In this document: positions 8,741 to 20,018 of the stretch, piece after piece | How the letters are laid out: the number at the start of each line of letters is the position of its first letter | Position numbering within the stretch: position 1 is the stretch's first letter | Origin: Ruminococcus sp. | Lineage (GTDB): Bacteria > Bacillota_A > Clostridia > Oscillospirales > Ruminococcaceae | DNA length: 64,000 nt | Assembly (NCBI RefSeq): GCF_016283395.1 | Contig: NZ_JAEEMU010000039.1 | Coordinates: forward strand, 1 to 64,000 | Direction of reading: 5' to 3' | Notes under the pieces: generated by a model | Database searches by the model: none | Told to the model about the DNA's origin: nothing | The model's input: only the letters and a program-made list of their open reading frames with translations | Program-made: the position numbers and the translations under genes

Positions 8741-8881
8741 TTAGCGATTTTTTCTGCTAACGCCAGCAGCTGTACCGATAGCAGTACCAGCAGCGATAAG
8801 TGCACAAACTACTGCGATAACAACCTCGCCGCCGTTTGTATCCATAAGGTCCTTTGTATTGAGATCTGTAAACTTATTCAT
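8741..8881 (-). CDS. Double-glycine peptide 1 (type A core)
   Basis: The 46-residue precursor has leader MNKFTDLNTKDLMDTNGG and a 28-residue core. The core begins EVVIAVVC, contains two overlapping GxxxG motifs (GTAIGTAAG) and ends in the cationic VSRKNR. One Cys is present. GGAGGAATAT lies before ATG. It is the last gene of the leftward array and alternates with type B genes, as expected for two-peptide (class IIb) bacteriocins, whose partners associate through GxxxG. Identity of the partner is inferred from order only. Confidence 0.82.
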   Translation of the reverse strand: MNKFTDLNTKDLMDTNGGEVVIAVVCALIAAGTAIGTAAGVSRKNR

Positions 8882-8909
8882 TTTTATATTCCTCCGATAA
8901 TTTTATAGA

Positions 8910-9059
8910 TTAAGCAAGTACGTATGTAAGGCCATAGCTAACAGCTACACTGCCAGCGAAAGCTGCTGCATATATGATGATTGGAAGAACTCCACCATCA
9001 ATGTTTTCCATCTCTACTGCATTAAGCTCTGCAAATCCATTATTCATTGTATATTCCAT
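8910..9059 (-). CDS. Double-glycine peptide 2 (type B core)
   Basis: The 49-residue precursor has a 23-residue leader (MEYTMNNGFAELNAVEMEN, then IDGG). The 26-residue core is uncharged and hydrophobic: VLPIIIYAAAFAGS, then VAVSYGLTYVLA. It has no Cys. A second in-frame ATG (MNNGF) lies 4 codons later, but the GGAGG is spaced for the first. It sits 28 bases from its type A neighbour and is the likely partner in a two-component peptide. Confidence 0.82.
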   Translation of the reverse strand: MEYTMNNGFAELNAVEMENIDGGVLPIIIYAAAFAGSVAVSYGLTYVLA

Positions 9060-9094
9060 TTTTATATTCCTCCGTAATTATTAGTTATTGTAGA

Positions 9095-9247
9095 TTAGCG
9101 ATTTTTTCTGCTAACACCAGCAGCTGTACCGATAGCAGTACCAGCAGCGATAAGTGCACATGTAATTAATACGACATCGTCTATACCTAAAACGCCGCCA
9201 TCTGTATTCATAAGTTCTTTTGTATTAAGATCTGTAAACTTATTCAT
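9095..9247 (-). CDS. Double-glycine peptide 3 (type A core)
   Basis: The 50-residue precursor has leader MNKFTDLNTKELMNTDGG and a 32-residue core. It begins VLGIDDVVLITC and shares the ALIAAGTAIGTAAGVSRKNR end with peptide 1. The GIDDV segment is an insertion relative to peptide 1 and recurs in peptides 8 and 32. The surrounding DNA is a near-copy of the region of peptide 1, which shows recent tandem duplication. Confidence 0.82.
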   Translation of the reverse strand: MNKFTDLNTKELMNTDGGVLGIDDVVLITCALIAAGTAIGTAAGVSRKNR

Positions 9248-9275
9248 TTTTATATTCCTCCGATAATTTTATAGA

Positions 9276-9425
9276 TTAAGCAAGTACGTATGTAAGGCCG
9301 TAGCTAACAGCTAAGCTGCCAACGAAAGCACCAGCGTAAACGATGAGCGGAATGATACCACCATCGATGTTTTCCATTTCTACAGCGTTAAGCTCTGCAA
9401 ATCCATTATTCATTGTATATTCCAT
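9276..9425 (-). CDS. Double-glycine peptide 4 (type B core)
   Basis: This 49-residue precursor is a close copy of peptide 2 with the same leader. The 26-residue core begins IIPLIVYAGAFVGS and ends SYGLTYVLA. Changes are concentrated in the first half of the core (VLPIII to IIPLIV, AAA to AGA), so the copies have diverged in the mature part. TCCTCC on the plus strand gives a strong ribosome site. Confidence 0.82.
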   Translation of the reverse strand: MEYTMNNGFAELNAVEMENIDGGIIPLIVYAGAFVGSLAVSYGLTYVLA

Positions 9426-9459
9426 TTTATTTTCCTCCGTAATTATCAGTTATTGTTAA

Positions 9460-9615
9460 TTAGCGATTTTTTCTGCTAACGCCTGAAGCTACACCGATAG
9501 CAGTACCAGCAGCGATGAGTGCACAAACTACTGCGATGATAACTTCTCCGCCTGATGTGTTCATTGCGTCTGATTCAGAAAGCTCTGCAAATCCATTATT
9601 CATTGTATATTCCAT
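9460..9615 (-). CDS. Double-glycine peptide 5 (type A core, hybrid leader)
   Basis: The 51-residue precursor joins the type B leader start (MEYTMNNGFAEL) to SESDAMNTSGG. The 28-residue core is type A: EVIIAVVCALIAAGTAIGVA, then a SGVSRKNR end. The mix of a type B leader and a type A core suggests exchange of leader and core segments between array genes. Confidence 0.82.
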   Translation of the reverse strand: MEYTMNNGFAELSESDAMNTSGGEVIIAVVCALIAAGTAIGVASGVSRKNR

Positions 9616-9643
9616 TTTCAATTTCCTCCGTAATTTTTATTGA

Positions 9644-9802
9644 TTATGATCTGTTCTTTCTGCTTTTTGCTGAAGCTACACCGATAGCAGTACCTGCAGC
9701 GATAAGTGCGCCAACTACTGCGATGATAACTTCTCCGCCTGATGTGTTCATTGCGTCTGACTCAGAAAGCTCTGCAAATCTATTATTCATTGTGAAATCC
9801 AT
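9644..9802 (-). CDS. Double-glycine peptide 6 (type A core, Cys-free)
   Basis: This 52-residue relative of peptide 5 has a leader beginning MDFTMNNRFAELSESDAMN and ending TSGG. The 29-residue core starts EVIIAVVGALIAAG, where Gly replaces the Cys of other type A cores, and ends AKSRKNRS. It therefore cannot form the disulfide or thiol chemistry open to peptides 1, 3, 5 and 8. Confidence 0.82.
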   Translation of the reverse strand: MDFTMNNRFAELSESDAMNTSGGEVIIAVVGALIAAGTAIGVASAKSRKNRS

Positions 9803-9829
9803 TTTTATATTCCTCCGTAGTATTATTGA

Positions 9830-9979
9830 TTAAGCAAGTACGTATGTAAGGCCATAGCTAACAGCTACACTGCCAGCGAAAGCTGCTGCATATATGATGA
9901 TTGGAAGGATGCCACCATCGATATTTTCCATTTCTACAGCGTTAAGCTCTGTAAATCCATTATTCATTGTATATTCCAT
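9830..9979 (-). CDS. Double-glycine peptide 7 (type B core)
   Basis: This 49-residue precursor is almost the same as peptide 2, with Thr for Ala in the leader (GFTEL) and ILPIIIYAAAFAGS starting the 26-residue core. It is the third type B gene of the alternating block. An ATTTCCTCC ribosome site on the plus strand precedes the first ATG. Confidence 0.82.
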   Translation of the reverse strand: MEYTMNNGFTELNAVEMENIDGGILPIIIYAAAFAGSVAVSYGLTYVLA

Positions 9980-10007
9980 TTTCAATTTCCTCCGTAATTT
10001 AGTTTAA

Positions 10008-10160
10008 TTAGCGATTCTTTCTGCTAACACCAGCAGCTGTACCGATAGCAGTACCTGCAGCGATAAGTGCGCAAGTAATTAATACGACATCATCTATACC
10101 TAAAACGCCGCCATCTGTATTCATAAGTTCTTTTGTATTGAGATCTGTAAACTTAGTCAT
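10008..10160 (-). CDS. Double-glycine peptide 8 (type A core)
   Basis: This 50-residue precursor has leader MTKFTDLNTKELMNTDGG. Its 32-residue core is the same as that of peptide 3 (VLGIDDVVLITC start, VSRKNR end), and only synonymous and leader changes separate the two genes. It is the first gene of the alternating A/B block, next to a decayed copy. Confidence 0.82.
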   Translation of the reverse strand: MTKFTDLNTKELMNTDGGVLGIDDVVLITCALIAAGTAIGTAAGVSRKNR

Positions 10161-10185
10161 TTTATATTCCTCCTATTAGATATAT

Positions 10186-10333
10186 TTACTTCTTTAATGT
10201 AGACAGCTTATATGCAGTAGCAACTGCTGCTCCTGTACCGACAATTGCAAGAATATGAGATTGTCAGCAAAGAAGGTGCCGCCGTCTGTGTTCATAACTC
10301 GTTTGCGTTAAACTCTGAAAATCTATTATTCAG
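10186..10333 (-). pseudogene. Decayed double-glycine peptide gene (two frameshifts, start lost)
   Basis: The minus strand reads CTG AAT AAT AGA TTT TCA GAG, where paralogues have ATG AAT AAT. After NNRFSEFNANE a base is missing before LMNTDGG. A second shift leads into VGTGAAVATAYKLSTLKK, a normal core end. The start overlaps the stop of the 72-residue membrane protein gene, whose insertion or deletion junction may have inactivated it. Confidence 0.75.
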
Positions 10334-10544
10334 CGTGATTCTTTTCTTCAGCCTTCAATTTTTCTTCTTTACATTTCTTATTTGCATACCAGAATAGTGG
10401 CACATAAATCAGACTTACTAATCCTGATACACGTAAAAATGCAAATGTATTTGTTGTCTGAGATGATACTGTCATCAATGTGAAGATGAACAGGAATAAA
10501 AGTGTTATAAAAAGTGCAGTATATGTACTAGCTTTATTTTTCAT
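10326..10544 (-). CDS. Small two-helix membrane protein, possible immunity protein
   Basis: This 72-residue protein has two membrane helices (TALFITLLFLFIFTLMTV and VSGLVSLIYVPLFWYA) and a charged cytoplasmic tail (NKKCKEEKLKAEEKNHAE). AAGGAGG lies 7 bases before ATG. It has no double-glycine leader and is the only non-precursor gene inside the array. Small membrane proteins of this kind often give immunity to unmodified bacteriocins; that role is inferred from size and position only. Confidence 0.75.
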   Translation of the reverse strand: MKNKASTYTALFITLLFLFIFTLMTVSSQTTNTFAFLRVSGLVSLIYVPLFWYANKKCKEEKLKAEEKNHAE

Positions 10545-10623
10545 TATTATTTCCTCCTTAGAAATTGTTTCTATAATTATTGATTTCTAAAATCTGAATT
10601 TCTGGATATATAAAAGCACTATA

Positions 10624-10752
10624 TTACTTGAATAATTTGCTTATAAGGTAACTTGCAAGTATAACTGGACCAAGTGCTGGACCTACAATACTTACACTGC
10701 CGCCATTTACTTTATTCATTTCCTTAGAATTAAGCTCTGTAAATTTAGTCAT
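10624..10752 (-). CDS. Double-glycine peptide 9
   Basis: The 42-residue precursor has the canonical leader MTKFTELNSKEMNKVNGG. The 24-residue core starts SVSIVGPALGPVILAS and ends in SKLFK. GP repeats and a basic end are the only visible features. The gene could be read further upstream without a stop, but AAGGAGAAAATAAA precedes this ATG. Confidence 0.8.
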   Translation of the reverse strand: MTKFTELNSKEMNKVNGGSVSIVGPALGPVILASYLISKLFK

Positions 10753-10780
10753 TTTATTTTCTCCTTTATTTATATATTTT

Positions 10781-10918
10781 TTACTTTGAATACTTGTTTG
10801 CAAAGTAACCAAGAATCGGTGCTGCAATAACCGGTGCTGCAAGTGGGATAAGGATAACCGGGAATCCACCGTCTATATCGTTCATTTCCTTAGAATTAAG
10901 ATCTCTAAAATTAGTCAT
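10781..10918 (-). CDS. Double-glycine peptide 10 (core identical to peptide 11)
   Basis: The 45-residue precursor has leader MTNFRDLNSKEMNDIDGG and a 27-residue core starting FPVILIPLAAPVIAAP and ending GYFANKYSK. The core is identical in amino acids to that of the next gene, and the two sit in a direct tandem repeat of about 167 bp. Proline-rich hydrophobic sequence with a cationic end suggests membrane activity. Confidence 0.82.
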   Translation of the reverse strand: MTNFRDLNSKEMNDIDGGFPVILIPLAAPVIAAPILGYFANKYSK

Positions 10919-10947
10919 TTTTGTTTTCTCCTTTATTTATATATTTT

Positions 10948-11085
10948 TTACTTTGAATACTTGTTTGCAAAGTAACCAAGAATCGGTGCTGCAATAACCG
11001 GTGCTGCAAGCGGGATAAGGATAACCGGGAATCCACCGTCTATATCGTTCATTTCCTTAGAATTAAGATCTGTAAATTTAGTCAT
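10948..11085 (-). CDS. Double-glycine peptide 11 (core identical to peptide 10)
   Basis: The 45-residue precursor has leader MTKFTDLNSKEMNDIDGG. The core matches peptide 10 residue for residue with one silent base change. The two leaders differ by K/N at position 3 and T/R at position 5. It is the upstream copy of the tandem pair and keeps the commoner leader sequence. Confidence 0.82.
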   Translation of the reverse strand: MTKFTDLNSKEMNDIDGGFPVILIPLAAPVIAAPILGYFANKYSK

Positions 11086-11134
11086 TTTTATTTTCTCCTT
11101 TTATTTTATAATTTTGATATGATTTAATTTATTA

Positions 11135-11278
11135 TTATCTATATATTGGTATAATAGGACCTGATACCGTGATGAATATCTCAGGATGAGAAATAATGTA
11201 ATTTGCAATTGTAGATATTACACCACCGCCATTAACCTCATTAATATCCTTAGTATTAAGATCTGTAAAATTAGTCAT
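11135..11278 (-). CDS. Double-glycine peptide 12
   Basis: The 47-residue precursor has leader MTNFTDLNTKDINEVNGG and a 29-residue core starting GVISTIANYIISHPEIF and ending GPIIPIYR. The leader is shared with peptide 13, and both cores end in YR after a Pro-containing segment. Confidence 0.8.
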   Translation of the reverse strand: MTNFTDLNTKDINEVNGGGVISTIANYIISHPEIFITVSGPIIPIYR

Positions 11279-11326
11279 TTTTGTTTTTCTCCTTTCAATT
11301 TATTTATCTGTAATTATATAGTTATA

Positions 11327-11452
11327 TTATCTATAAAGCCAGTAAGGAACTGGTCCTGTTGAAGCAATAAGTAATGTTGCAAGAGTAGTTGCAATACTGC
11401 CGCCATTAACCTCATTAATATCCTTAGTATTAAGATCTGCAAAATAAGTCAT
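11327..11452 (-). CDS. Double-glycine peptide 13
   Basis: The 41-residue precursor has leader MTYFADLNTKDINEVNGG and a 23-residue core, SIATTLATLLIAS then TGPVPYWLYR. An early Thr/Ser-rich helix-like stretch is followed by an aromatic end. A CTCCTT-type ribosome site on the plus strand precedes ATG. Confidence 0.8.
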   Translation of the reverse strand: MTYFADLNTKDINEVNGGSIATTLATLLIASTGPVPYWLYR

Positions 11453-11496
11453 TTTATTTTCTCCTTCAGATTTATTTATAAAATTATTACGTGTAA

Positions 11497-11622
11497 TTAT
11501 GTATTAGACCAGCGAATCAAAATGTTGCCGATTGTTCTGAGTGCTTTAGAAACAGGGCCGTTACCGCCGCCTGTTACTGTATCTTTTTCATTAGCTGAAA
11601 GCTCTGTAAAATTCTTGCTCAT
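11497..11622 (-). CDS. Double-glycine peptide 14
   Basis: The 41-residue precursor has leader MSKNFTELSANEKDTVTGG and a 22-residue cationic core, GNGPVSKALRTIG then NILIRWSNT. The core could form a short amphipathic helix with K, R and R on one face. Confidence 0.8.
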   Translation of the reverse strand: MSKNFTELSANEKDTVTGGGNGPVSKALRTIGNILIRWSNT

Positions 11623-11659
11623 TCTATTTTTCTCCTTTATATTTCTTCGTGATTGTTGA

Positions 11660-11812
11660 TTAGAAATTGATAACATATGACAAGACAATAAGTTTTGAGC
11701 CTACGACTGCAGCGGCCTTTTTAGCACCACTTATTGGGATGCGTCCTCCGTCTACAGTGATTGCTTCGTCATTATTAAGCTCTGAAAAACCATTATTCAT
11801 TGTATATTCCAT
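11660..11812 (-). CDS. Double-glycine peptide 15
   Basis: The 50-residue precursor has a 23-residue leader (MEYTMNNGFSELNNDEAIT, then VDGG). The 27-residue core starts RIPISGAKKAAAVVGS and ends VLSYVINF. Basic residues lie at the N-terminal end of the core, with a hydrophobic end, the reverse of the type A peptides. Confidence 0.8.
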   Translation of the reverse strand: MEYTMNNGFSELNNDEAITVDGGRIPISGAKKAAAVVGSKLIVLSYVINF

Positions 11813-11878
11813 TTTATTTTTCTCCTTTTTACTTTATAATTTTCGTGTTTTAATTTACGTATATTAAAAGTAATTAGT

Positions 11879-12037
11879 TTACCTTAAAATCCATACTGGA
11901 TAAAGTGGATATGAAGGAACAGTTGTATAAATAATAGCCTTAGCTGCTGTCTGAGCAACCTTTGCGAGTGTAGATGCAACACTACCGCCATTAACCTCGT
12001 TCATATCATTAGCATTAAGATCTGTAAAATAAGTCAT
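11879..12037 (-). CDS. Double-glycine peptide 16
   Basis: The 52-residue precursor has leader MTYFTDLNANDMNEVNGG. The 34-residue core starts SVASTLAKVAQTAAKAI, a helix-like Ala-rich stretch, then turns Pro- and Tyr-rich (VPSYPLYPVWILR). The start resembles peptide 13, so the two probably share descent. Confidence 0.8.
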   Translation of the reverse strand: MTYFTDLNANDMNEVNGGSVASTLAKVAQTAAKAIIYTTVPSYPLYPVWILR

Positions 12038-12111
12038 TATTAGTTTTCTCCTTTCATATTTTTAGAAAATCAGTTTGTATTTTGAAATTGCTGTATTAAT
12101 CTATATTACAA

Positions 12112-12228
12112 TTATGCAAGCCAATACCTGATCTTATTAAGTATTGTATAAGGAAGTTTTGAAGGCCATACATAACCGCCATTAGTCTTAGTCATTTCCT
12201 TAGAACTAAGTTCAGTAAATTTAGTCAT
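12112..12228 (-). CDS. Double-glycine peptide 17
   Basis: The 38-residue precursor has leader MTKFTELSSKEMTKTNGG and a short 20-residue core, YVWPSKLPYTILNKIRYWLA. The core is cationic and aromatic with two Trp, two Tyr and two Pro. Confidence 0.8.
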   Translation of the reverse strand: MTKFTELSSKEMTKTNGGYVWPSKLPYTILNKIRYWLA

Positions 12229-12252
12229 ATTTGTTTCTCCTAAAAATATTGA

Positions 12253-12375
12253 TTATAAAATCCCAGTTCCCAGACTAAAGTGTTCCTTAAGCCATTGAGC
12301 TACAGTCTGAACAAGACCGCCGCCGTTGGTTTCATTCTTTTCTTTAGCTGAAAGCTCTGTAAAATTCTTGCTCAT
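12253..12375 (-). CDS. Double-glycine peptide 18
   Basis: The 40-residue precursor has leader MSKNFTELSAKEKNETNGG and a 21-residue core, GLVQTVAQWLKEHF then SLGTGIL. Residues 3-13 of the core form a plausible amphipathic helix. Leader and length match peptide 14. Confidence 0.8.
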   Translation of the reverse strand: MSKNFTELSAKEKNETNGGGLVQTVAQWLKEHFSLGTGIL

Positions 12376-12399
12376 TTTGGATTTCTCCTTTATTGCATT

Positions 12400-12528
12400 T
12401 TAGCAAACTACTACAGATGATCTTATGATAAATTCCAGAACATCTGCCCATGTAATACGTCCGCCGTCTACAGTGATGATCTCATCATTATTAAGCTCTG
12501 AAAAGCCGTTAGTTACTATGTAATTCAT
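12400..12528 (-). CDS. Double-glycine peptide 19
   Basis: The 42-residue precursor has a 23-residue leader (MNYIVTNGFSELNNDEIIT, then VDGG) and a 19-residue core, RITWADVLEFIIRSSVVVC, ending in a C-terminal Cys. The leader is a relative of that of peptide 15. GGAGGAATATAG precedes ATG. Confidence 0.8.
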   Translation of the reverse strand: MNYIVTNGFSELNNDEIITVDGGRITWADVLEFIIRSSVVVC

Positions 12529-12546
12529 GTCTATATTCCTCCGCTA

Positions 12547-12687
12547 TTAGCGTACAACCGGTCTTACGACAGGAAGTGTAATGCGAATAGGTGGATCGAT
12601 CCAGATGAAAGGTCTTCTGATTCCGACAATGCTTCCGCCGTTTACGGAAACGAGATCTTTAACATTAAGATTTGTAAAATTAGTCAT
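12547..12687 (-). CDS. Double-glycine peptide 20 (Pro/Arg-rich core)
   Basis: The 46-residue precursor has leader MTNFTNLNVKDLVSVNGG. The 28-residue core starts SIVGIRRPFIWIDPP and ends ITLPVVRPVVR. It carries five Arg and five Pro in the manner of proline-rich antimicrobial peptides. Similarity to that class is compositional only; compare peptide 40. Confidence 0.8.
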   Translation of the reverse strand: MTNFTNLNVKDLVSVNGGSIVGIRRPFIWIDPPIRITLPVVRPVVR

Positions 12688-12702
12688 TTTTGTTTTCTCC
12701 TT

Positions 12703-12891
12703 TTATCTTTTATGTGTGAATATTACTTGTGGAAGTGTTGCTGTAAACTCAGCCAATGCAGGTGTTGGTAAGGTAATAATCGGATTATGTACTACATAAT
12801 TTATAGCAGCACCAACAATTTCCTTGACACCTCCGCCACTTACCTCTGTCATATTCTTAGCATCAAGCTTTATAAAACCATTGTTCATCAT
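12703..12891 (-). CDS. Double-glycine peptide 21
   Basis: The 62-residue precursor has leader MMNNGFIKLDAKNMTEVSGG, in which Gly-Gly is preceded by Ser instead of Asn or Asp. The 42-residue core, among the longest here, starts GVKEIVGAAINYVVHNP and ends PQVIFTHKR. The ribosome site is weak (AAAGAAAAC), and either of the two first Met codons could be used. Confidence 0.75.
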   Translation of the reverse strand: MMNNGFIKLDAKNMTEVSGGGVKEIVGAAINYVVHNPIITLPTPALAEFTATLPQVIFTHKR

Positions 12892-12913
12892 AAGTTTTCT
12901 TTATTTATACCAA

Positions 12914-13057
12914 TCAATATGGAAATGTTGTGCGGTTTTTCGGATTATAGATCGGTCCGGGATTAGGGAAAAGGATATCTCTTACATTAGAGATAAATAT
13001 CATTCCGCCATTTACCTTATTGAGTTCATTTGCGTTAAGTACGATAAAATTAGCCAT
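12914..13057 (-). CDS. Double-glycine peptide 22 (Pro-rich core, VLN leader)
   Basis: The 47-residue precursor has leader MANFIVLNANELNKVNGG, of the VLNxNEL leader type. The 29-residue core starts MIFISNVRDILFPNPGPI and ends NRTTFPY, with four Pro residues. Other genes with this leader type also have Pro-rich cores. Confidence 0.8.
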   Translation of the reverse strand: MANFIVLNANELNKVNGGMIFISNVRDILFPNPGPIYNPKNRTTFPY

Positions 13058-13322: not shown

Positions 13323-13325
13323 TTT

Positions 13326-13630
13326 TATTTTCTCCTTATATTTCATTATTAAATTGTATTTCTGTAATAAAAATCTTATCATTTTGCCGCACTCAGGCTC
13401 GATATGATATTTCTATCATATCTCTGTTCAGAAAAGTCTACTCTCGGCATATGTATAAATGGCACTCTTTTCGTATCTCTTTATACGTATCATCATTACT
13501 TCTCTGCCTGTTTCATAACCTACTTTAGCCTGCTCTGATATAGCCTGATGCTGACAAATATATTTTCTTGTATTATATACTTATAAATATTCTAAACTCA
13601 GTTAGAATGCTTATTTTCCCTTGTTAATGT
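13326..13630. repeat. Segmental duplication R1 (intergenic unit of the array)
   Basis: About 300 bases recur with few changes at 14488-14791 and in part at 15453-15735 and 16440-16515. Each copy lies upstream of an intact small-peptide gene. The minus strand of copies R1 and R2 keeps a residual reading frame (EQAKVGYETGREV, then IRIKRYEKSAIYTYA), which is broken in R3, so the unit seems to be the wreck of an older gene carried along with the duplications. Confidence 0.75.
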
Positions 13631-13783
13631 TTATCCTAAGATAAACGAGCAACTCTGAAGGTTCGGGATCACTTTAACCCGAGGACGTATCGGAAGTATG
13701 TATCTGCCGCCTATAAGTTTGCCGACAGTTCCGACGTTCACCTTATCGAGTTAACTTGCGTTAAGTACAACAAAGTGGTTCAT
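13631..13783 (-). pseudogene. Decayed double-glycine peptide gene (nonsense codon, GG lost)
   Basis: The frame reads MNHFVVLNAS, then TAA, then LDKVNVG, where the cleavage Gly-Gly has become Val-Gly. The remaining core matches the intact paralogue at 14792-14947 (GRYILPI.PRVK.IPNLQSC, SFILG). It is thus a dead sister copy inside duplicated unit R1. Confidence 0.8.
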
Positions 13784-14349: not shown

Positions 14350-14484
14350 TTACCAGCAGATAGTTCCCGGAATTTCAATTCTTGGGATTGTGAATTTGCC
14401 TTTTCTTGGATTTTCAGGCATATATACAAATCCACCGTTGATCTTACCGAGATCATTAGCATTAAGTACTACAAAATTGTTCAT
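14350..14484 (-). CDS. Double-glycine peptide 27 (Pro-rich core, VLN leader)
   Basis: The 44-residue precursor has leader MNNFVVLNANDLGKINGG. The 26-residue core starts FVYMPENPRKGKFTIPR and ends PGTICW. It contains four Pro and four basic residues, with Cys-Trp at the end. Confidence 0.8.
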   Translation of the reverse strand: MNNFVVLNANDLGKINGGFVYMPENPRKGKFTIPRIEIPGTICW

Positions 14485-14487
14485 TTT

Positions 14488-14791
14488 ATTTTCTCCTTAT
14501 ATTTCATTATTAAATTGTATTTCTGTGATAAAAACCTTATCATTTTGCCGCACTCAGGCTCGATATGATATTTCTATCATATCTTTGTTCAGAAAAGTCT
14601 ACTCTTGGCATATGTATAAATGGCACTCTTTTCGTATCTCTTTATACGTATCATTATTACTTCTCTGCCTGTTTCATAACCTACTTTAGCCTGTTCTGAG
14701 ATAGCCTGTTGCTGACAAATTATATTTCGTATGTTATATACTTATAAATATTCTAAACTTAGTTAGAATGCTTATTTTCTCTTGTTAATGA
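14488..14791. repeat. Segmental duplication R2
   Basis: This is a near-identical copy of R1 lying upstream of peptide 27 and downstream of peptide 28. Differences from R1 are scattered single bases. Confidence 0.75.
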
Positions 14792-15130: not shown

Positions 15131-15146
15131 TTTGTTTCTCCTTTTT

Positions 15147-15449: not shown

Positions 15450-15452
15450 TAT

Positions 15453-15735
15453 TATTTTCTCCTTATATTTCATTATTAAATTGTATTTCTGTGATAAAAA
15501 ACTTATCATTTTTGCCGCACCCAGGCTCGATATGATATTTCTATCATATCTCTGTTCAGAAAAGTCTACTCTCGGCATATGTATAAATGGCACTCTTTTC
15601 GTATCTCATATACGTATCATTATTACTTCTCTGCCTGTTTCATAACCTGCTTTAGCCTGTCCTGATATAGCCTGCTGCTGACAAATTATATTTCGTATGT
15701 TATATGCTTATAAATATTCTAAACTGAGTTAGAAT
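15453..15735. repeat. Segmental duplication R3
   Basis: This is a third, more diverged copy of R1 with small deletions, one of which removes a TTT triplet region near 15605. The residual reading frame of R1 and R2 is broken here. Confidence 0.7.
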
Positions 15736-15800
15736 GGTTATTTTCGATATTTACTATAATCTGCTCGTCAGATTACTTCTTTAAATAGCTGTATGCTAAA

Positions 15801-15947
15801 TCAATAGCAAATAATTGGACCTGGGAAGGTGATTATTGGTCCCGGGAACTTGATTGGACCTGGATTGTAGACCGTTTTGGGATCATAATAATATCCGCCA
15901 TTGAGCTTATTGAGTTCACTTGTGTTAAGTACTACAAAATTAGCCAT
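15801..15947 (-). CDS. Double-glycine peptide 31 (PGPI-repeat core)
   Basis: The 48-residue precursor has leader MANFVVLNTSELNKLNGG. The 30-residue core starts YYYDPKTVYN and then holds three copies of a PGPI unit (NPGPIKF, FPGPIITF, FPGPIICY), ending in Cys-Tyr. An internal repeat in so small a core is unusual and points to growth by unit duplication. Confidence 0.82.
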   Translation of the reverse strand: MANFVVLNTSELNKLNGGYYYDPKTVYNPGPIKFPGPIITFPGPIICY

Positions 15948-16090
15948 TTTCGTTTCTCCTTATTTATAGTTCTATTTTCTGCTGCATATATAACTCTGCC
16001 TACCAACGCAGGATAATTCACTGCGCCGATTCTGAGTAGATACTTGCATTGATGTATGTTAATTCCAAGGTGCTCTTGCTTAAAGTTGAG

Positions 16091-16201
16091 TCAATGTTTT
16101 CTGGGGAATAGAATGCCATATACTATGCCTCTAACTATACTGGTAATTACACTGTCAAAAAATGAACCACCAATAAATCTATTAATGTCCTTAGAATTCT
16201 A
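16091..16201 (-). pseudogene. Double-glycine peptide gene lacking its 5' end
   Basis: The minus strand reads NSKDINRFIGG, then SFFDSVITSIVRGIVYGI and LFPRKH with TGA. The first about eight leader codons and the ribosome site are missing, and the sequence passes straight into the 3' end of the next gene upstream. It is a deletion remnant. Confidence 0.75.
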
Positions 16202-16211
16202 TATGTTTAGA

Positions 16212-16367
16212 TTACTTGATATAATGATTATAAACGTATGTTGCGCCGTAAGCGACAGCAGTGCCAATACCAATTACACATGCTAAAGCAACGTCGTCAA
16301 TACCAAAGATGCCGCCATCTGTGTTCATGAGCTCTTTTGTATTAAGTTCTGTAAAATTCTTGCTCAT
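16212..16367 (-). CDS. Double-glycine peptide 32
   Basis: The 51-residue precursor has leader MSKNFTELNTKELMNTDGG. The 32-residue core starts IFGIDDVALACVIGIGTAVA and ends VYNHYIK. The GIDDV start, single Cys and GxxxG-rich middle make it a distant member of the type A group at 8.7-10.2 kb. Confidence 0.8.
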   Translation of the reverse strand: MSKNFTELNTKELMNTDGGIFGIDDVALACVIGIGTAVAYGATYVYNHYIK

Positions 16368-16581
16368 TTTATTATCTTCTTATGTATTCGGGCACGATAT
16401 TGCTGCATACATACCTTCGCTAAAGGCTGGTATCCGACAAGTATAGATGGCACTCTTATTCGTATCTCATATACGTATCATTATTACTTTTCTGCCTGTT
16501 CCATTGTCTTTACTGCACCTGTTCCGAGAGAAAATGTTGCAGTCAATATCATTAAAACCTTATATTATTACTTATCAACAA

Positions 16582-16749
16582 TTAGTCAAAGAGACCGCTA
16601 ACAAAATCCTTTGTGCTGTTCCAAAGATACTTACAGCCGCTGATCCAGTTTCCGGTAAACTCCTTTACCAGATTCTTTGCCTGAGAAAGTACGCTGCCGC
16701 CGTTTACTTCTGTCATTTCTGCTGCATTAAGTTCTGTAAATTTAGCCAT
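16582..16749 (-). CDS. Double-glycine peptide 33 (Trp-rich pair with 34)
   Basis: The 55-residue precursor has leader MAKFTELNAAEMTEVNGG. The 37-residue core starts SVLSQAKNLVKEF, has GNWISGCKYLW in the middle and ends NSTKDFVSGLFD. The last 18 residues are the same as in peptide 34 on the far side of a lanthipeptide precursor gene. AGGAGGAAAATAAC precedes ATG. Confidence 0.82.
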   Translation of the reverse strand: MAKFTELNAAEMTEVNGGSVLSQAKNLVKEFTGNWISGCKYLWNSTKDFVSGLFD

Positions 16750-16809
16750 TGTTATTTTCCTCCTGAATATCTTTCGTTGTTTTTTAGATCATATATTATA
16801 AGTTTTTGA

Positions 16810-17025
16810 TTATCTGCAAGACTTGCGTGAGCCATTGCACTCTGCTGATACAGTCATCACTGCGCCACATCTATATGCTTTTGTTGCGGCAACGTATGCA
16901 CCTGCTGTGATAGCTACGCTGATCGCAATTGCAGCACCTGCTGATGCGCCTGTCTCGTCACCGAGTTCCATATCCTTTGCTTCATCGAGAAGCTCGTTCA
17001 TTTCTGTTGTTTTCTTTTCTGACAT
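16810..17025 (-). CDS. Class II lanthipeptide precursor inside the unmodified-peptide array
   Basis: The 71-residue product begins MSEKKTTEMNELLDEAKDME, the same leader family as the precursors at 27299 and 27509, followed by LGDETGA as the likely cleavage region. The core has many Ser/Thr and three Cys (residues 53, 63 and 70: YRCGAVMT, SAECNGS, RKSCR), as needed for lanthionine rings. The nearest LanM gene is 7 kb away and in another transcription unit. It lies between peptides 33 and 34, with its ribosome site 10 bases from the stop of 34. Confidence 0.82.
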   Translation of the reverse strand: MSEKKTTEMNELLDEAKDMELGDETGASAGAAIAISVAITAGAYVAATKAYRCGAVMTVSAECNGSRKSCR

Positions 17026-17047
17026 GATATTTTTCTCCTATCAATAA

Positions 17048-17215
17048 TTAGTCAAAGAGACCGCTAACAAAATCCTTTGTGCTGTTCCAAAGATACTTGC
17101 AGCCGCTTACCCAGCATGTTGCAGCGGTTGATACAAAAGTCTTTGCCTTATCAAGTACGCCGCCACCGTTTACTTCTGTTATTTCTGTTGCATTAAGTTC
17201 TGTAAATTTGCTCAT
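17048..17215 (-). CDS. Double-glycine peptide 34 (Trp-rich pair with 33)
   Basis: The 55-residue precursor has leader MSKFTELNATEITEVNGG. The 37-residue core starts GVLDKAKTFVSTAATCWVSG, continues CKYLWNSTKDF and ends VSGLFD. It has two Cys, against one in peptide 33. The first half of the core has diverged while the second half is identical, which suggests that the second half is a shared contact surface. Confidence 0.82.
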   Translation of the reverse strand: MSKFTELNATEITEVNGGGVLDKAKTFVSTAATCWVSGCKYLWNSTKDFVSGLFD

Positions 17216-17282
17216 TTTTAATTTCCTCCATTATTGTTATATTTTTTAGTGTATCGATATTATATTCTTTTTAATATGTTGA

Positions 17283-17432
17283 TTACAGCCATCCATAAAG
17301 ACGTTTTACAAATTTTCCGATCCTGGTATCGTATATAGCATCTTTTATTGAGTCCATTACATTGTATTTTGAAGAACCGCCATTAGTAGCGTCCATTTCT
17401 TTAGGATCAAGCTCTTTAAAATTATCAGCCAT
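17283..17432 (-). CDS. Double-glycine peptide 35
   Basis: The 49-residue precursor has leader MADNFKELDPKEMDATNGG. The 30-residue core is charged and less hydrophobic than most: SSKYNVMDSIKDAIYDTR, then IGKFVKRLYGWL. GGAGGATAATATA before ATG sets the start; two Met codons further upstream lack a ribosome site. Confidence 0.8.
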   Translation of the reverse strand: MADNFKELDPKEMDATNGGSSKYNVMDSIKDAIYDTRIGKFVKRLYGWL

Positions 17433-17451
17433 TATATTATCCTCCATGATC

Positions 17452-17646
17452 TTACTTTGTAAAAGCGCTAATAGCACTGCCGATCATAAGCTGATCTGTT
17501 ACAGGATTAAATTCACGAGTGACCATGAGTTGACCGTTTCTCTTTACAAAGTAAACAGGTCTTGTATCCTGCCACATAAAGCTTGGATTGATATATCCGC
17601 CATTAGTGTAATTCATTTCTGCTGCGTTAAGTATTGCAAAAGTCAT
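17452..17646 (-). CDS. Double-glycine peptide 36 (long core)
   Basis: The 64-residue precursor has a short 17-residue leader, MTFAILNAAEMNYTNGG. The 47-residue core, the longest here, starts YINPSFMWQDTRPVYFVKR and ends GSAISAFTK. Four codons separate the stop from the ribosome site of the next gene. The core has no Cys. Confidence 0.78.
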   Translation of the reverse strand: MTFAILNAAEMNYTNGGYINPSFMWQDTRPVYFVKRNGQLMVTREFNPVTDQLMIGSAISAFTK

Positions 17647-17687
17647 TTTGTTTGTCTCCTGTATATTTGTAGAATTATCTTGCTATA

Positions 17688-17831
17688 TTACTTTCTTTTA
17701 GCCTGGTACAAAGCATATGCTGTATATAATACACTTGCACCGAATACGATAGCTTTAGTTGGAATCATTGGAAGGGAACCGCCGTTAGTCTCGTCCATTT
17801 CCTTAGCATTGAGTTCTGCGAAATTAGCCAT
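17688..17831 (-). CDS. Double-glycine peptide 37
   Basis: The 47-residue precursor has leader MANFAELNAKEMDETNGG. The 29-residue core starts SLPMIPTKAIVFGASVLY and ends ALYQAKRK. It resembles peptides 38 and 41: Pro near the start, Ala/Tyr-rich helix and a strongly basic end. Confidence 0.8.
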   Translation of the reverse strand: MANFAELNAKEMDETNGGSLPMIPTKAIVFGASVLYTAYALYQAKRK

Positions 17832-17856
17832 TTTTAATTTCTCCTTTTATTTTCAT

Positions 17857-17994
17857 TTAGAAACGTCCTCGGGATGTTACAAATGGTGTGCCGCCAAACG
17901 GGAAAGAAATTATCCTGATAATGGTATCATCACCATATTCGCCCTTAACGCTGTTATTTTTCTTAAAATCAGTATCTGAAGAATAAGTATTCAT
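17857..17994 (-). CDS. Small array peptide without canonical leader
   Basis: The 45-residue product begins MNTYSSDTDFKKNNSVKGEY and lacks ELxxxE and a Gly-Gly near position 18. A Gly-Gly does occur at residues 34-35 (ISFPFGG), followed by TPFVTSRGRF. GGAGATTATAAA precedes ATG, so it is probably expressed. It may be a precursor with a different leader, or one that has lost its leader by recombination. Confidence 0.6.
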   Translation of the reverse strand: MNTYSSDTDFKKNNSVKGEYGDDTIIRIISFPFGGTPFVTSRGRF

Positions 17995-18162
17995 TTTATA
18001 ATCTCCTTCTGTGAAATCATGCTATTTCAAGGATAAACAAATTCACTTCACCTGCCGATACAGGATCCTGTTCACCGTACCGATCCAAAGCAAACACGTA
18101 CACTATCCCCTGTAATTAGCCATAAAATACTTATAATATTTTTATAGAATTATACTGTTTAA

Positions 18163-18294
18163 TTACTTATGTGAAGCCTGATATGCAGCGTATGCTGCAC
18201 CTGCAACACCTGCACCGATTGCTATGATAATCGGAAGGAATCCACCGTTAGTCTCGTTCATTTCCTTAGAATTGAGTTCTGTAAAGTTAGCCAT
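18163..18294 (-). CDS. Double-glycine peptide 38
   Basis: The 43-residue precursor has the canonical leader MANFTELNSKEMNETNGG. The 25-residue core starts FLPIIIAIGAGVAGAAY and ends AAYQASHK. It has GxxxG (GAGVAG) and a weakly basic end. It is part of a closely spaced run of similar genes (37, 38, 39, 41). Confidence 0.8.
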   Translation of the reverse strand: MANFTELNSKEMNETNGGFLPIIIAIGAGVAGAAYAAYQASHK

Positions 18295-18336
18295 TTTTTA
18301 TTTCTCCTTTAATATTTATAGAATTATATTGTTTAA

Positions 18337-18471
18337 TTACTTCTTAAGAACGTTATAGCATGCAGCATATATAGCTGTAGTAGCTACAACAAAACCTGCA
18401 AAGACCAACGGGATAACTCCGCCGTCTGTCTCGTTCATTTCCTTAGCTGAAAGCTCTGTAAACTTGCTCAT
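18337..18471 (-). CDS. Double-glycine peptide 39
   Basis: The 44-residue precursor has leader MSKFTELSAKEMNETDGG. The 26-residue core starts VIPLVFAGFVVATTAIY and ends CYNVLKK, with one Cys and terminal Lys-Lys. Confidence 0.8.
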   Translation of the reverse strand: MSKFTELSAKEMNETDGGVIPLVFAGFVVATTAIYAACYNVLKK

Positions 18472-18491
18472 TTTAGTTTTCTCCTTTGTTA

Positions 18492-18638
18492 TCAAACGTA
18501 ATAATAAACCGGTCTGATAGGTCTGACAGGACGAATAGTATCAATAGGTCTGATCGGTCTTACAGGCAGGATAGTAACCATACCGCCGTTTAATGCATTA
18601 AGCTCGTCCGGATTAAGTCTTACAAAATTAGTCATCAT
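18492..18638 (-). CDS. Double-glycine peptide 40 (RPIRP-repeat, Pro/Arg-rich core)
   Basis: The 48-residue precursor begins with two Met codons (MMTNFVRLNPDELNALNGG). The 29-residue core starts MVTILPVRPIRPID, repeats the unit as TIRPVRPIRPV and ends YYYV. It has five Arg and six Pro with no Lys or Cys. This is the composition and motif (R-P-x-R-P) of ribosome-targeting proline-rich antimicrobial peptides such as the insect apidaecins; homology to them is not claimed. The leader is of the VLN/VRLN type. Confidence 0.82.
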   Translation of the reverse strand: MMTNFVRLNPDELNALNGGMVTILPVRPIRPIDTIRPVRPIRPVYYYV

Positions 18639-18679
18639 TTTAGTATTCTCCCTTTAAATTATAGAATTATCCTGTAACA

Positions 18680-18811
18680 TTACTTTCTTGTAGCTCTGTA
18701 TACAAGGTATGCAGCAGTAAGATATGTAGCGATCTTAATTGGAAGTGTAGGTACAGATCCACCATTAGTCTCGTTCATTTCCTGTGCGCTGAGTTCTGCA
18801 AAATTAGCCAT
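18680..18811 (-). CDS. Double-glycine peptide 41
   Basis: The 43-residue precursor has leader MANFAELSAQEMNETNGG. The 25-residue core starts SVPTLPIKIATYLTAAY and ends LVYRATRK. It is a relative of peptide 37, with the same length pattern and basic end. Confidence 0.8.
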   Translation of the reverse strand: MANFAELSAQEMNETNGGSVPTLPIKIATYLTAAYLVYRATRK

Positions 18812-18852
18812 TGTTATTTCTCCTTTTTTACATTATAGAATATGGGTTTATA

Positions 18853-18963
18853 TTATTTTTTCTTCGGCAGTAAAATATTTCGCCAATCAGGCAAACATAT
18901 GGATCTACCGCCGTTTACTTCTTCTTTATCATTAGGTGGAAGCTCTTTAAAATCCTTGTTCAT
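18853..18963 (-). CDS. Double-glycine peptide 42 (shortest core)
   Basis: The 36-residue precursor has leader MNKDFKELPPNDKEEVNGG and the shortest core of the array, the 17-residue RSICLPDWRNILLPKKK. The core is strongly cationic with one Cys and two Pro. Confidence 0.78.
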   Translation of the reverse strand: MNKDFKELPPNDKEEVNGGRSICLPDWRNILLPKKK

Positions 18964-19005
18964 GATAATTTTCTCCTTTTTCATTATAGAATTATAAATA
19001 TATGT

Positions 19006-19134
19006 TTACTTCTTTAACTGTCGAAGTAAAGATTCTCTTATAGTGCGCCTAAGGTCTGCAGGTATATAAATAGAAGTTCCACCATTTGTCTTGTCACATT
19101 CCTTAGCGTCAAGCTCCTTAAAATTATCAGCCAT
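19006..19134 (-). CDS. Double-glycine peptide 43
   Basis: The 42-residue precursor has leader MADNFKELDAKECDKTNGG, with an unusual Cys in the leader. The 23-residue core, TSIYIPADLRRTIRES then LLRQLKK, is a probable cationic amphipathic helix with six basic residues. Confidence 0.8.
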   Translation of the reverse strand: MADNFKELDAKECDKTNGGTSIYIPADLRRTIRESLLRQLKK

Positions 19135-19186
19135 TTTAAGCTTCCTCCTTCTTTAATTTTATAAAAATATCCTTTTCAGGACATCA

Positions 19187-19333
19187 TTATCTGAATATCC
19201 AAGTGAAACGCTTCTTTAACTTTATTGGTGGATTAATATCGATTACGCGTTTGTCAAAGATCGGCTCCGAAACAACAAATCCACCGCCTATCTCGCTGAT
19301 CTCTTCGTCACTGAGTTCTACAAAGTTATCCAT
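19187..19333 (-). CDS. Double-glycine peptide 44
   Basis: The 48-residue precursor has leader MDNFVELSDEEISEIGGG. The 30-residue core starts FVVSEPIFDKRVIDINPP and ends KRFTWIFR, mixing acidic and basic residues. The leader is more acidic than its neighbours. Confidence 0.8.
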   Translation of the reverse strand: MDNFVELSDEEISEIGGGFVVSEPIFDKRVIDINPPIKLKKRFTWIFR

Positions 19334-19377
19334 TTTGCTTTCTCCTTTATATTATTAAATATATGTACTAAAGTCTG

Positions 19378-19515
19378 TTACTTAGAAAATCTTGTAAAAA
19401 GCTTCTTGAATCTGCTGACAGGAGTACCCTCGCAGATATAGTCATTATCAATAGCAGTGCAGATGCAACCGCCGTTGATCTCTTTCATTTCCATAGAATT
19501 AAGCTCTGTAAACAT
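19378..19515 (-). CDS. Double-glycine peptide 45 (three-Cys core)
   Basis: The 45-residue precursor has a 16-residue leader, MFTELNSMEMKEINGG, shortened at its start. The 29-residue core begins CICTAIDNDYICEGTPVS and ends FTRFSK. Three Cys (core positions 1, 3 and 12) and several Thr/Ser are unlike the other cores, so a disulfide or a modification is possible. Confidence 0.78.
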   Translation of the reverse strand: MFTELNSMEMKEINGGCICTAIDNDYICEGTPVSRFKKLFTRFSK

Positions 19516-19564
19516 GATCTTTTTTCTCCTTTACTTATTATAGAATTATAGTTATATATTACTT

Positions 19565-19687
19565 CTAACACTGGCAGGCCTTATATATTACTGCACCTAA
19601 AGCTAATAAAACAGGTACGATGATAGTTGTCAGACCGCCATTAGTTTCATTCATTTCCTTAGAGTTGAGTTCTGTAAAATCACTCAT
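19565..19687 (-). CDS. Double-glycine peptide 46
   Basis: The 40-residue precursor has leader MSDFTELNSKEMNETNGG and a 22-residue core, LTTIIVPVLLALGAV then IYKACQC, ending in C-x-C. TAG is used as stop, followed by an in-frame AAG TAA; read-through would add a Lys-Lys-like end as in other array genes. It has possibly lost its original end by one base change. Confidence 0.78.
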   Translation of the reverse strand: MSDFTELNSKEMNETNGGLTTIIVPVLLALGAVIYKACQC

Positions 19688-19705
19688 TTTTCTTACCTCT
19701 TAGAA

Positions 19706-19855
19706 TTATCTTCTCTTTAATAAACTGATCCCCGATATTTTTATCGGAACGGGATCGACCAATATCCCTGTTGACCAGCCAAAGGGATGATATCCTCCGT
19801 TGATATCCGTCATTTCATTGATATTGAGATAATTGAAGTTATTCTGATGTTCCAT
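19706..19855 (-). CDS. Double-glycine peptide 47
   Basis: The 49-residue precursor has a 21-residue leader (MEHQNNFNYLNINEMTDI, then NGG). The 28-residue core starts YHPFGWSTGILVDPVPIK and ends SLLKRR. An AGGAGGAAATT ribosome site precedes ATG. Confidence 0.8.
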   Translation of the reverse strand: MEHQNNFNYLNINEMTDINGGYHPFGWSTGILVDPVPIKISGISLLKRR

Positions 19856-19883
19856 AATTTCCTCCTAATTCTCGATATGCTTA

Positions 19884-20018
19884 TTACTTCTTAAAACAAT
19901 TGCCTATCTTATATGCAACATATGCTGCAACAGCCAGAGCCAGTGATGCTTTAACCTTTGCTCCGCCATTTACTTCATTCATTTCCTGTGCATTGAGTTC
20001 TGCGAAATTTGTGCTCAT
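19884..20018 (-). CDS. Double-glycine peptide 48 (promoter-proximal)
   Basis: The 44-residue precursor has leader MSTNFAELNAQEMNEVNGG. The 25-residue core starts AKVKASLALAVAAYVAY and ends NCFKK, an Ala-rich cationic helix with one Cys. It is the first gene of the leftward array, about 150 bases downstream of promoter P2. Confidence 0.82.
   Translation of the reverse strand: MSTNFAELNAQEMNEVNGGAKVKASLALAVAAYVAYKIGNCFKK

What the first reader, a model, noticed from the sequence alone, without database searches (positions are those of the whole stretch)
8741..20018. An 11.3-kb array of 48 intact double-glycine-leader peptide genes
Between 8741 and 20018 I count 48 intact small leftward genes, each with a ribosome site, a 16-23 residue leader ending in Gly-Gly, and cores of 17-47 residues. 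One precursor without a clear leader, one lanthipeptide precursor, three decayed copies and one membrane protein are interspersed. Known class II bacteriocin loci usually hold one to about a dozen such genes. Leaders fit a common form (M-x-x-F-x-E-L-N-x-K-E-M-N-E-x-N-G-G), while cores differ greatly, as expected if one exporter serves a diversified arsenal.
Basis: partly seen in the sequence, partly recalled or inferred. Interest (0 to 1): 0.95.

Follow-up and report, generated by a model that had tools for sequence, protein, structure and literature searches.

The report
Forty-eight-peptide bacteriocin array with shared switch
A likely Ruminococcus genome carries 48 tiny genes in one row, encoding 46 different short peptides behind one common kind of export tag, likely a stock of bacteria-inhibiting peptides that a single neighbouring pump would trim and release and that a tiny signal peptide is predicted to switch on.

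Summary
In detail: 48 intact leftward genes at 8741-20018, all starting ATG, leaders of 16-23 aa ending Gly-Gly, cores of 17-47 aa, 46 of them distinct. The leaders carry the pattern that C39-peptidase exporters recognise, and a full exporter (best solved match PCAT1, 4RY2) plus a HlyD-like protein lie just downstream. Cores are mostly cationic and unlike each other; leaders and cores have been shuffled between copies. No surveyed genome comes close: at most 12 profile hits in any of 125 genus genomes, at most 9 leader hits in any of 32 related exporter loci. The same box and a short Trp/Phe-rich ORF stand divergent to all 17 related systems fetched. Killing, cleavage, transcription and signalling are inferred, not shown. 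New variant of a known kind.

The parts
8741..20018 (-). Array of 48 GG-leader precursor genes, starting (low coordinate) at 8741, 8910, 9095, 9276, 9460, 9644, 9830, 10008, 10624, 10781, 10948, 11135, 11327, 11497, 11660, 11879, 12112, 12253, 12400, 12547, 12703, 12914, 13188, 13836, 13992, 14185, 14350, 14792, 14996, 15285, 15801, 16212, 16582, 17048, 17283, 17452, 17688, 18163, 18337, 18492, 18680, 18853, 19006, 19187, 19378, 19565, 19706, 19884
   Evidence: median gap between neighbours 41 nt, coding 6909 of 11278 bp
18492..18638 (-). Precursor with a proline-arginine-rich core (MVTILPVRPIRPIDTIRPVRPIRPVYYYV)
   Evidence: two metagenome relatives P0026 and P0027 with identical leader and changed core
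16810..17025 (-). Lanthipeptide-like precursor inside the array, start region 84-87% identical in DNA to the precursors at 27.3-27.7 kb
   Evidence: NF040663 29 bits, below its cut-off of 60
10326..10544 (-). 72-aa hydrophobic ORF in the array; immunity protein only as a guess
   Evidence: no family
13634..13783 (-). Decayed copy of precursor 14792
8681..8721 (-). 17-pair terminator-like hairpin between array and exporter
8615..8679 (-). Box plus -10 (TTTACTC-N14-TTTACTC-N31-TATAAT) before the exporter gene
6125..8563 (-). C39-peptidase ABC exporter (PCAT)
4227..6110 (-). HlyD-like protein, candidate accessory protein of the exporter
   Evidence: PF13437 over its cut-off; TIGR01843 and TIGR01000 under theirs
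4136..4168 (-). 15-pair terminator-like hairpin after the HlyD-like gene
3468..3914 (-). GyrI-like/DUF5085-like protein; weak box (3 mismatches) upstream at 4017
   Evidence: (both families under cut-off)
20167..20516 (-). Three box-plus--10 sites upstream of the array, boxes starting at 20516, 20402 (or 20398) and 20235 (or 20231)
28053..28236 (-). Two box-plus--10 sites upstream of the lanthipeptide operon, boxes starting at 28236 and 28122
21423..27974 (-). Lanthipeptide operon: precursors 27768-27974, 27509-27697, 27299-27481, LanM 24106-27210, C39-ABC exporter 21949-24102, precursors 21670-21903 and 21423-21629
37825..37889 (-). Box plus -10 before the micropeptide ORFs
37751..37777 (-). 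Micropeptide ORF MFWDWFDF, copy 1 (candidate signal)
37640..37666 (-). Micropeptide ORF MFWDWFDF, copy 2 (candidate signal)
37988..38713 (+). LytTR response regulator
38710..40020 (+). GHKL histidine kinase
40127..42075 (+). ABC-2 transporter (ATPase 40127-40906, permease 40903-42075); candidate for self-protection or signal export, untested

Best explanation
The array encodes 48 precursors with 46 distinct cores, which the adjacent C39 exporter is predicted to cleave after Gly-Gly and release as mostly unmodified, likely class II bacteriocin-like peptides, while a peptide-sensing LytTR/GHKL circuit likely switches on the array, the exporter and a lanthipeptide operon together. Shown from sequence: the genes, the leader pattern at -15, -12, -8, -7, -4 and GG, the exporter and its aligned residues, leader-core shuffling between copies, and one promoter layout before the array, exporter, lanthipeptide operon and twin 8-aa ORFs. 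Inferred: transcription, export and cleavage, action against other bacteria, binding of this regulator to these boxes, and the 8-aa peptide as its signal. The diversity would arise by tandem duplication, recombination near the leader-core junction and within cores, and divergence of cores under one constant export tag.
For: 48 genes, leader positions and ribosome sites. Exporter over the TIGR01193 cut-off, best solved relative PCAT1. Leader positions -15, -12, -7, -4 are those that bind PCAT peptidase domains (PMC7018657, passages). 40/48 cores cationic, GxxxG in 10/48 against 4.7 +/- 1.9 in shuffles; TIGR03949 24/48 and PF10439 24/48 at E<=0.1. Shuffling: 8741/9460 core dS 0.20, leader dS 1.28; 8910/9830 core dS 0.05, leader dS 0.78. 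Promoter layout at 7 distinct strong sites in the window, Markov null mean 0.08, max 1; 17/17 related two-component loci have box, -10 at 31 nt and a short aromatic ORF; 0 sites in 35 other loci, 565 kb.
Against: No activity, RNA or mass data. Half of the precursors match no bacteriocin model at E<=0.1, and 13/48 match a lantibiotic model. No cognate immunity genes recognised for 46 different cores. The HlyD-like protein is under both curated accessory cut-offs. In the other genomes no box was seen before a GG array: first ORFs after boxes are micropeptides, secreted proteins, GyrI-like and others, and four genomes with GG precursors (G001, G004, G014, G016) have no exact box. Box rule and ORF class were first seen in these sequences, so not blind tests. 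Terminator and sigma-70 scans near chance overall, and internal promoters in the array are not excluded, so a single transcript is not shown.
Confidence: 0.62

Rival explanations
1. The 48 are GG-leader peptides for signalling, biofilm or niche adaptation rather than killing, exported by the same pump.
For: GG peptides with such roles are reported (PMC7018657, passages). No recognised immunity genes; 2/48 match ComC (PF03047, best E 0.014) and 1/48 BlpC (E 0.073).
Against: The diversity of cores (40 clusters at 50% identity) fits no single receptor; 24/48 match class IIb bacteriocin models, cores are cationic; a lanthipeptide operon shares the promoters.
Confidence: 0.17
2. The precursors are substrates of the nearby LanM and become lanthipeptides, as in the prochlorosins.
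For: LanM and lanthipeptide precursors lie 4-8 kb away and share promoters; 13/48 match TIGR03893 at E<=0.1.
Against: 30/48 cores have no cysteine and only 4/48 have two or more; the leaders differ from the MSEKKTTEMNELLEEA-type leaders beside LanM.
Confidence: 0.06
3. Export is right, but the array is regulated otherwise: the shared boxes are bound by another regulator or the micropeptide ORFs are not signals.
For: No binding or signalling data; 8-aa ORFs are very short; boxes elsewhere stand before varied genes.
Against: 17/17 related two-component loci have box and short aromatic ORF in the same divergent place; shuffles give a short ORF with ribosome site in 4.4%, with two or more F/W in 1.2%; three more distant kinase loci and 32 exporter loci have no site.
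Confidence: 0.3
4. A decaying, mostly silent gene array kept on a mobile element, without present use.
For: Some decayed copies and repeated debris; ParA, ParB, Rep_3 and recombinase genes around.
Against: 48 intact frames with ribosome sites; dN/dS about 0.28 (leaders) and 0.35 (cores) in 7 chosen pairs; conserved promoters.
Confidence: 0.06

Closest known systems
Class II double-glycine bacteriocin loci with a PCAT exporter (pneumococcal ComAB/BlpAB, RtgAB; PMC7018657, passages)
   Same: GG leaders with the -15/-12/-7/-4 pattern, C39-ABC exporter, several cargoes per exporter
   Different: 48 precursors in one run; no recognised immunity genes beside them; leader-core mosaics
Prochlorosins/synechococsins (PMC10783134, passages) and R. 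flavefaciens FD-1 lanthipeptides (PMC3951391, passages)
   Same: One machinery for many cores behind conserved leaders; up to 16 consecutive precursors, 79-83 per genome; 12 in FD-1
   Different: Those are LanM-modified (prochlorosins with Nif11 leaders, largely scattered); here short class II-type leaders, few cysteines, one contiguous run of 48
PCAT1 (4RY2) and LahT150 (PMC6363468, passages)
   Same: Exporter 6125-8563 aligns over residues 2-713 with PCAT1; a C39 domain that tolerates very different cargoes is documented
   Different: Substrates here are 48 in number and untested
Peptide quorum sensing by GHKL kinase and LytTR regulator (ComDE, BlpHR, agr; recalled)
   Same: Kinase and regulator families, direct repeats 21 nt apart, signal ORF under the same promoter type
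   Different: Candidate signal is a leaderless 7-24 aa Trp/Phe-rich ORF, divergent from the regulator; no GG-leader or AgrD-type precursor seen beside the kinase (AgrB/AgrD not searched for)

Membership tests
Class II double-glycine bacteriocin precursors | Short leader ending GG with hydrophobic -15, -12, -7, -4 | tested here: met
   F-15 47/48, L-12 47/48, M/L/I-7 40/48; at -4 T 19, V 16, I 8, others 5
Class II double-glycine bacteriocin precursors | Match to curated class II models (TIGR03949, PF10439, TIGR01847) | tested here: inconclusive
   24, 24 and 10 of 48 at E<=0.1; number over the curated cut-offs not shown except for member 1
Class II double-glycine bacteriocin precursors | Small, cationic, hydrophobic core | tested here: met
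   17-47 aa; 40/48 positive, 6 neutral, 2 negative
Class II double-glycine bacteriocin precursors | Cognate immunity genes | tested here: inconclusive
   One 72-aa hydrophobic ORF without a family; no systematic immunity search beyond the families scanned
Class II double-glycine bacteriocin precursors | Antimicrobial activity of the mature peptide | not testable with these tools
   needs synthesis or culture
PCAT exporters (TIGR01193) | Score over the curated cut-off, C39 domain | tested here: met
   733.7 bits against 523.85; PF03412 141.3 bits
PCAT exporters (TIGR01193) | Catalytic Cys, His, Asp | tested here: met
   C14, H92, D108 align with the same residues of 4RY2; that these are catalytic is recalled
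Class II lanthipeptides (LanM substrates) | Cores with Cys for lanthionine rings | tested here: not met
   30/48 without Cys, 4/48 with two or more
GHKL/LytTR peptide quorum sensing | GHKL kinase with adjacent LytTR regulator | tested here: met
   PF14501 79.2 bits, PF04397 71.3 bits
GHKL/LytTR peptide quorum sensing | Direct-repeat sites at target promoters and at the signal gene | tested here: met
   7 distinct strong sites in the window; 17/17 relatives; binding not tested
GHKL/LytTR peptide quorum sensing | Known type of signal precursor (GG-leader ComC/BlpC type or AgrD) | tested here: inconclusive
   Only leaderless 8-aa ORFs seen under the box beside the kinase; AgrB/AgrD not searched for

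The most novel reading that the evidence does not exclude
This is the largest contiguous bacteriocin arsenal known: 46 different peptides behind one export tag and one pump, remade by swapping leaders and cores between copies, and fired as a single volley with the pump and a lanthipeptide operon by a new family of quorum signals: leaderless, Trp/Phe-rich peptides of 7-24 residues read by a LytTR/GHKL pair and written into promoters of the form TTYACTC-N14-TTYACTC-N31-TATAAT across Ruminococcus.
Probability: 0.42. Interest if true: 0.9.

Novelty: new variant of a known kind. Interest (0 to 1): 0.77.

Why it matters
If the peptides work as predicted, one genome holds 46 natural cargoes for one pump: a ready test of how far a C39 exporter tolerates cargo, and of how a producer survives its own mixture without matching immunity genes. 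The promoter rule and the micropeptide make the regulation directly testable with an 8-residue synthetic peptide, and would give a signalling system for Ruminococcus, a genus of fibre degraders in rumen and gut (recalled). The proline-arginine core at 18492-18638 resembles proline-rich antimicrobial peptides of animals (recalled, no database comparison made).

Tried and rejected
Chance ORFs: rejected. Rfam: 0 matches at gathering score. tRNA: none. Sigma-70 consensus promoters: 76 found, 64.9 +/- 7.4 expected, uninformative; terminator scan 14 found, 10.7 +/- 3.4 expected, so only the two long hairpins are used. Replication/partition region against plasmids: no match. Exporter against plasmids: record limit reached, best about 63% in Paraclostridium sordellii, not pursued. 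Exporter in viral contigs: none confirmed. A 300-nt segment repeated three times upstream of 13188, 14350 and 15285 looked like an RNA element (fold z -3.68) but contains remnants of an unidentified reading frame, matched only within the window; treated as duplicated debris. Promoter-like sites inside two of these copies (14748, 15714) are left open. Attachment sites: one 13-nt match, 4126 and 43769, not tested against chance. Leader and core identity correlate only weakly (Spearman 0.16). Literature: 10 searches; I saw no report of a class II array near this size or of this micropeptide system in the listings, nor in the passages of the eight papers opened. The library lacks most subscription journals, so absence from print is not shown.
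Full report
WHAT IS THERE. The finding is right in its main count. Scanning both strands for short ORFs with a GG leader lists 49, all leftward; one (16752-16835) is judged spurious, leaving 48. A leader matrix built from 47 of those leaders recovers 48 sites in 64 kb, all in 8741-20018 on the minus strand, and none in the reversed sequence of the 33 records then held; this is circular for the window but not for the null. All 48 start with ATG; 43/48 have a ribosome site matching at least 5 of 6 bases, against 4.1% of 1046 other minus-strand ATGs. Leaders are 16-23 and cores 17-47 residues. Two pairs have identical cores (9095/10008 and 10781/10948), so 46 cores differ.

LEADERS. Position -15 is F in 47/48, -12 L in 47/48, -8 E or D in 47/48, -7 M, L or I in 40/48, and GG is in 48/48. 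The exception, 19187, ends in GGG and fits when read one residue later. Positions -15, -12, -7 and -4 are those stated to bind C39 peptidase domains through hydrophobic contacts (PMC7018657, passages seen). At -4, threonine (19/48) is commoner than valine (16/48), a departure from a purely hydrophobic pattern.

EXPORTER. Just downstream, 6125-8563 encodes a C39-ABC exporter: TIGR01193 at 733.7 bits against a cut-off of 523.85, with PCAT1 as best solved relative (4RY2, 841.6 bits); C14, H92 and D108 align with the same residues there (that these are catalytic is recalled). The next gene, 4227-6110, is HlyD-like but below both curated accessory-protein cut-offs. A C39 domain that accepts very different cargoes is known (LahT150, PMC6363468, passages).

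CORES. Mean pairwise identity is 17% for cores and 47% for leaders; leader identity exceeds core identity in 1106 of 1128 pairs; at 50% identity there are 40 core clusters. Leaders average charge -1.9, cores +2.0; 40/48 cores are positive, 6 neutral, 2 negative; the last eight residues average +1.5, the rest +0.5. GxxxG occurs in 10/48 against 4.7 +/- 1.9 in shuffles (11 of 1000 shuffles reach 10). Nine cores have four or more prolines. 30/48 lack cysteine and 4/48 have two or more, which speaks against processing by the nearby LanM. TIGR03949 (class IIb) matches 24/48 and PF10439 24/48 at E<=0.1, and the lantibiotic model TIGR03893 13/48; the precursors without a model rest on leader and context.

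HOW IT GREW. In 7 pairs chosen for similarity, pooled dN/dS is about 0.28 in leaders and 0.35 in cores, consistent with purifying selection. Leaders and cores have separate histories: 8741 and 9460 have nearly the same core (dS 0.20) under unlike leaders (dS 1.28); 8910 and 9830 have nearly the same core (dS 0.05) with leaders at dS 0.78; 16582 and 17048 are alike in the leader and the second half of the core, less between. Duplication plus recombination, near the GG junction and within cores, is the likely engine. The two metagenome relatives of the proline-arginine peptide (18492) have its 19-residue leader unchanged; the core is much changed in P0027, little in P0026. Some copies have decayed.

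HOW UNUSUAL. Of 32 loci fetched with the exporter, 22 have at least one matrix hit; the highest count is 9 (L002, R. flavefaciens XPD3002), then 8 (L023). Flanks were limited to 10 kb and several contigs end early, but 39 of the window's 48 would fall within that limit (coordinates). With the profile of the 48 (A1), 14 of 19 exporter-bearing genomes match at E<=0.01, maximum 10; 6 of 125 genus genomes match at E<=0.05, maximum 12 over four contigs of G002; 9 of 391 class genomes match at E<=0.01, maximum 10 (again G002), next 3. With TIGR03949, 27 of 396 family genomes match at E<=0.05, maximum 4, and 1 is over the cut-off. These are one genome per species, and A1 favours this array. Near relatives of single peptides lie on metagenome contigs up to 44 kb, so sister arrays probably exist. 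In print, the longest tandem run I saw is 16 consecutive prochlorosin precursors (PMC10783134, passages), with 79-83 precursors per genome in two strains, scattered; FD-1 has 12 lanthipeptide precursors (PMC3951391, passages). The 2026 survey of rumen isolates (PMC13289728, passages) reports 21 two-component loci and six lanthipeptide cores in XPD3002, and no array of dozens in the passages seen.

A SHARED SWITCH. The upstream regions of the array and of the lanthipeptide operon align over about 260 nt (score 79; best of 294 random window stretches 26). Both, and the exporter's upstream region, contain TTTACTC-like heptamers 21 or 25 nt apart. Pairs with at most one mismatch in total occur five times in the window, before the array, lan operon or exporter, and at no other spacing from 8 to 45; 60 Markov sequences give mean 0.13, maximum 1. 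In related genomes the -10 hexamer was seen to start 31 nt after the box in many cases. Tested back on the window, TTYACTC-N14/18-TTYACTC-N31-TATAAT gives 12 rows at 9 distinct sites: 7 strong ones, 8679 (exporter), 20516, 20402 and 20235 (array), 28236 and 28122 (lan operon) and 37889; a weaker one at 4017 before the GyrI-like gene; and one at 16488 (+) that I take as chance. At the stricter setting, spacing 31 gives 10 rows and every other spacing from 20 to 45 gives 0 to 2; 25 Markov sequences give mean 0.08, maximum 1.

THE CANDIDATE SIGNAL. Site 37889 precedes two copies, 111 nt apart, of an 8-residue ORF MFWDWFDF with ribosome sites, divergent from a LytTR regulator and GHKL kinase. The kinase has relatives in 81 of 125 genus genomes at E<=1e-10; I fetched the 17 best-scoring genomes (a second copy in G133 was left out). 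In 17/17, and in the window, the divergent region has the box (at most one mismatch), a -10 at exactly 31 nt (at most one mismatch), and a short ORF with ribosome site 70-117 nt after the box, such as MGGFWDFIFGR, MTWSTILDFLFGNK, MGDFLDWLFGGRK, MWDWLFG, MIWEWIFG. In L092 two ORFs overlap and only the second is Trp/Phe-rich; in L088, L095, L097 and L098 the ORFs are longer or less alike. The half-site was widened to TTY after seeing these loci, so box and ORF were not blind tests. Shuffled upstream sequence gives a box in 0.3% and, at 60-110 nt from a fixed point, a short ORF with ribosome site in 4.4%, with two or more F/W in 1.2%. Three more distant kinase loci (L079-L081) and the 32 exporter loci, 565 kb together, have no site. 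Over 23 genomes the exact box occurs 47 times in 17 genomes, against 5 for the reversed pattern; a few of the 47 lack a -10 and are likely chance. Against a general bacteriocin role, first ORFs after boxes elsewhere are micropeptides, secreted proteins, GyrI-like proteins and others, with no GG array seen (30 loci), and G001, G004, G014 and G016, which have GG precursors, have no exact box.

MECHANISM. I propose: the 8-residue peptide accumulates outside, the kinase senses it, the regulator binds the boxes, and array, exporter, lan operon and signal ORFs rise together; the exporter cuts each precursor after GG and releases the cores. The hairpin between array and exporter (8681-8721), followed by the exporter's own promoter, would set precursor and pump levels apart; strong hairpins stand in that gap in 4 of 17 other loci with an upstream precursor (L002, L013, L020, L023). 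All steps after the DNA are inferred. How the cell is protected is open: the 72-aa ORF and an ABC-2 transporter beside the kinase (40127-42075) are candidates without evidence.

SETTING. The exporter's eight Ruminococcus-labelled relatives match at 66-86% identity, most at 79% or more, and dockerins, GH9 and GH26 enzymes lie in the window, so the genus is likely Ruminococcus; no whole genome is held for the window. ParA, ParB, two Rep_3 initiators and two serine recombinases suggest a mobile element; its ends were not found.

Noticed in passing
window 37600-37889; loci L082-L098: Conserved divergent micropeptide ORFs with box promoters beside a LytTR/GHKL two-component system in 17 of 17 related loci; looks like a signalling family in its own right, also where no GG array is present.
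   Followed up: partly
window 13323-13622, 14484-14783, 15450-15749: Three copies (94-95% by blastn) of a 300-nt segment upstream of precursors 13188, 14350 and 15285, with remnants of an unidentified reading frame; a fourth partial copy at 16441-16546.
   Followed up: partly
window 28267-36022: ParA, ParB and two Rep_3 replication initiators in what otherwise looks chromosomal; ParB has only distant relatives (about 28-38% identity) in 8 of 8 genomes searched.
   Followed up: partly
window 2749-3342 and 43869-45413: A small resolvase and a large serine recombinase about 40 kb apart on either side of the array, lan operon and replication genes; a possible mobile unit.
   Followed up: partly
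window 20834-21286 and 31125-31586: Two similar small secreted-looking proteins (MKKIIKQIATAAMALSLLGTG..., MKNIIKKILATAMAFTLLGTD...) without a Pfam hit; proteins with like signal sequences follow boxes in several other genomes.
   Followed up: no
window 501-2603: Three consecutive short secreted ORFs with repeat-like sequence; two of them scanned and both match Dockerin_1.
   Followed up: no
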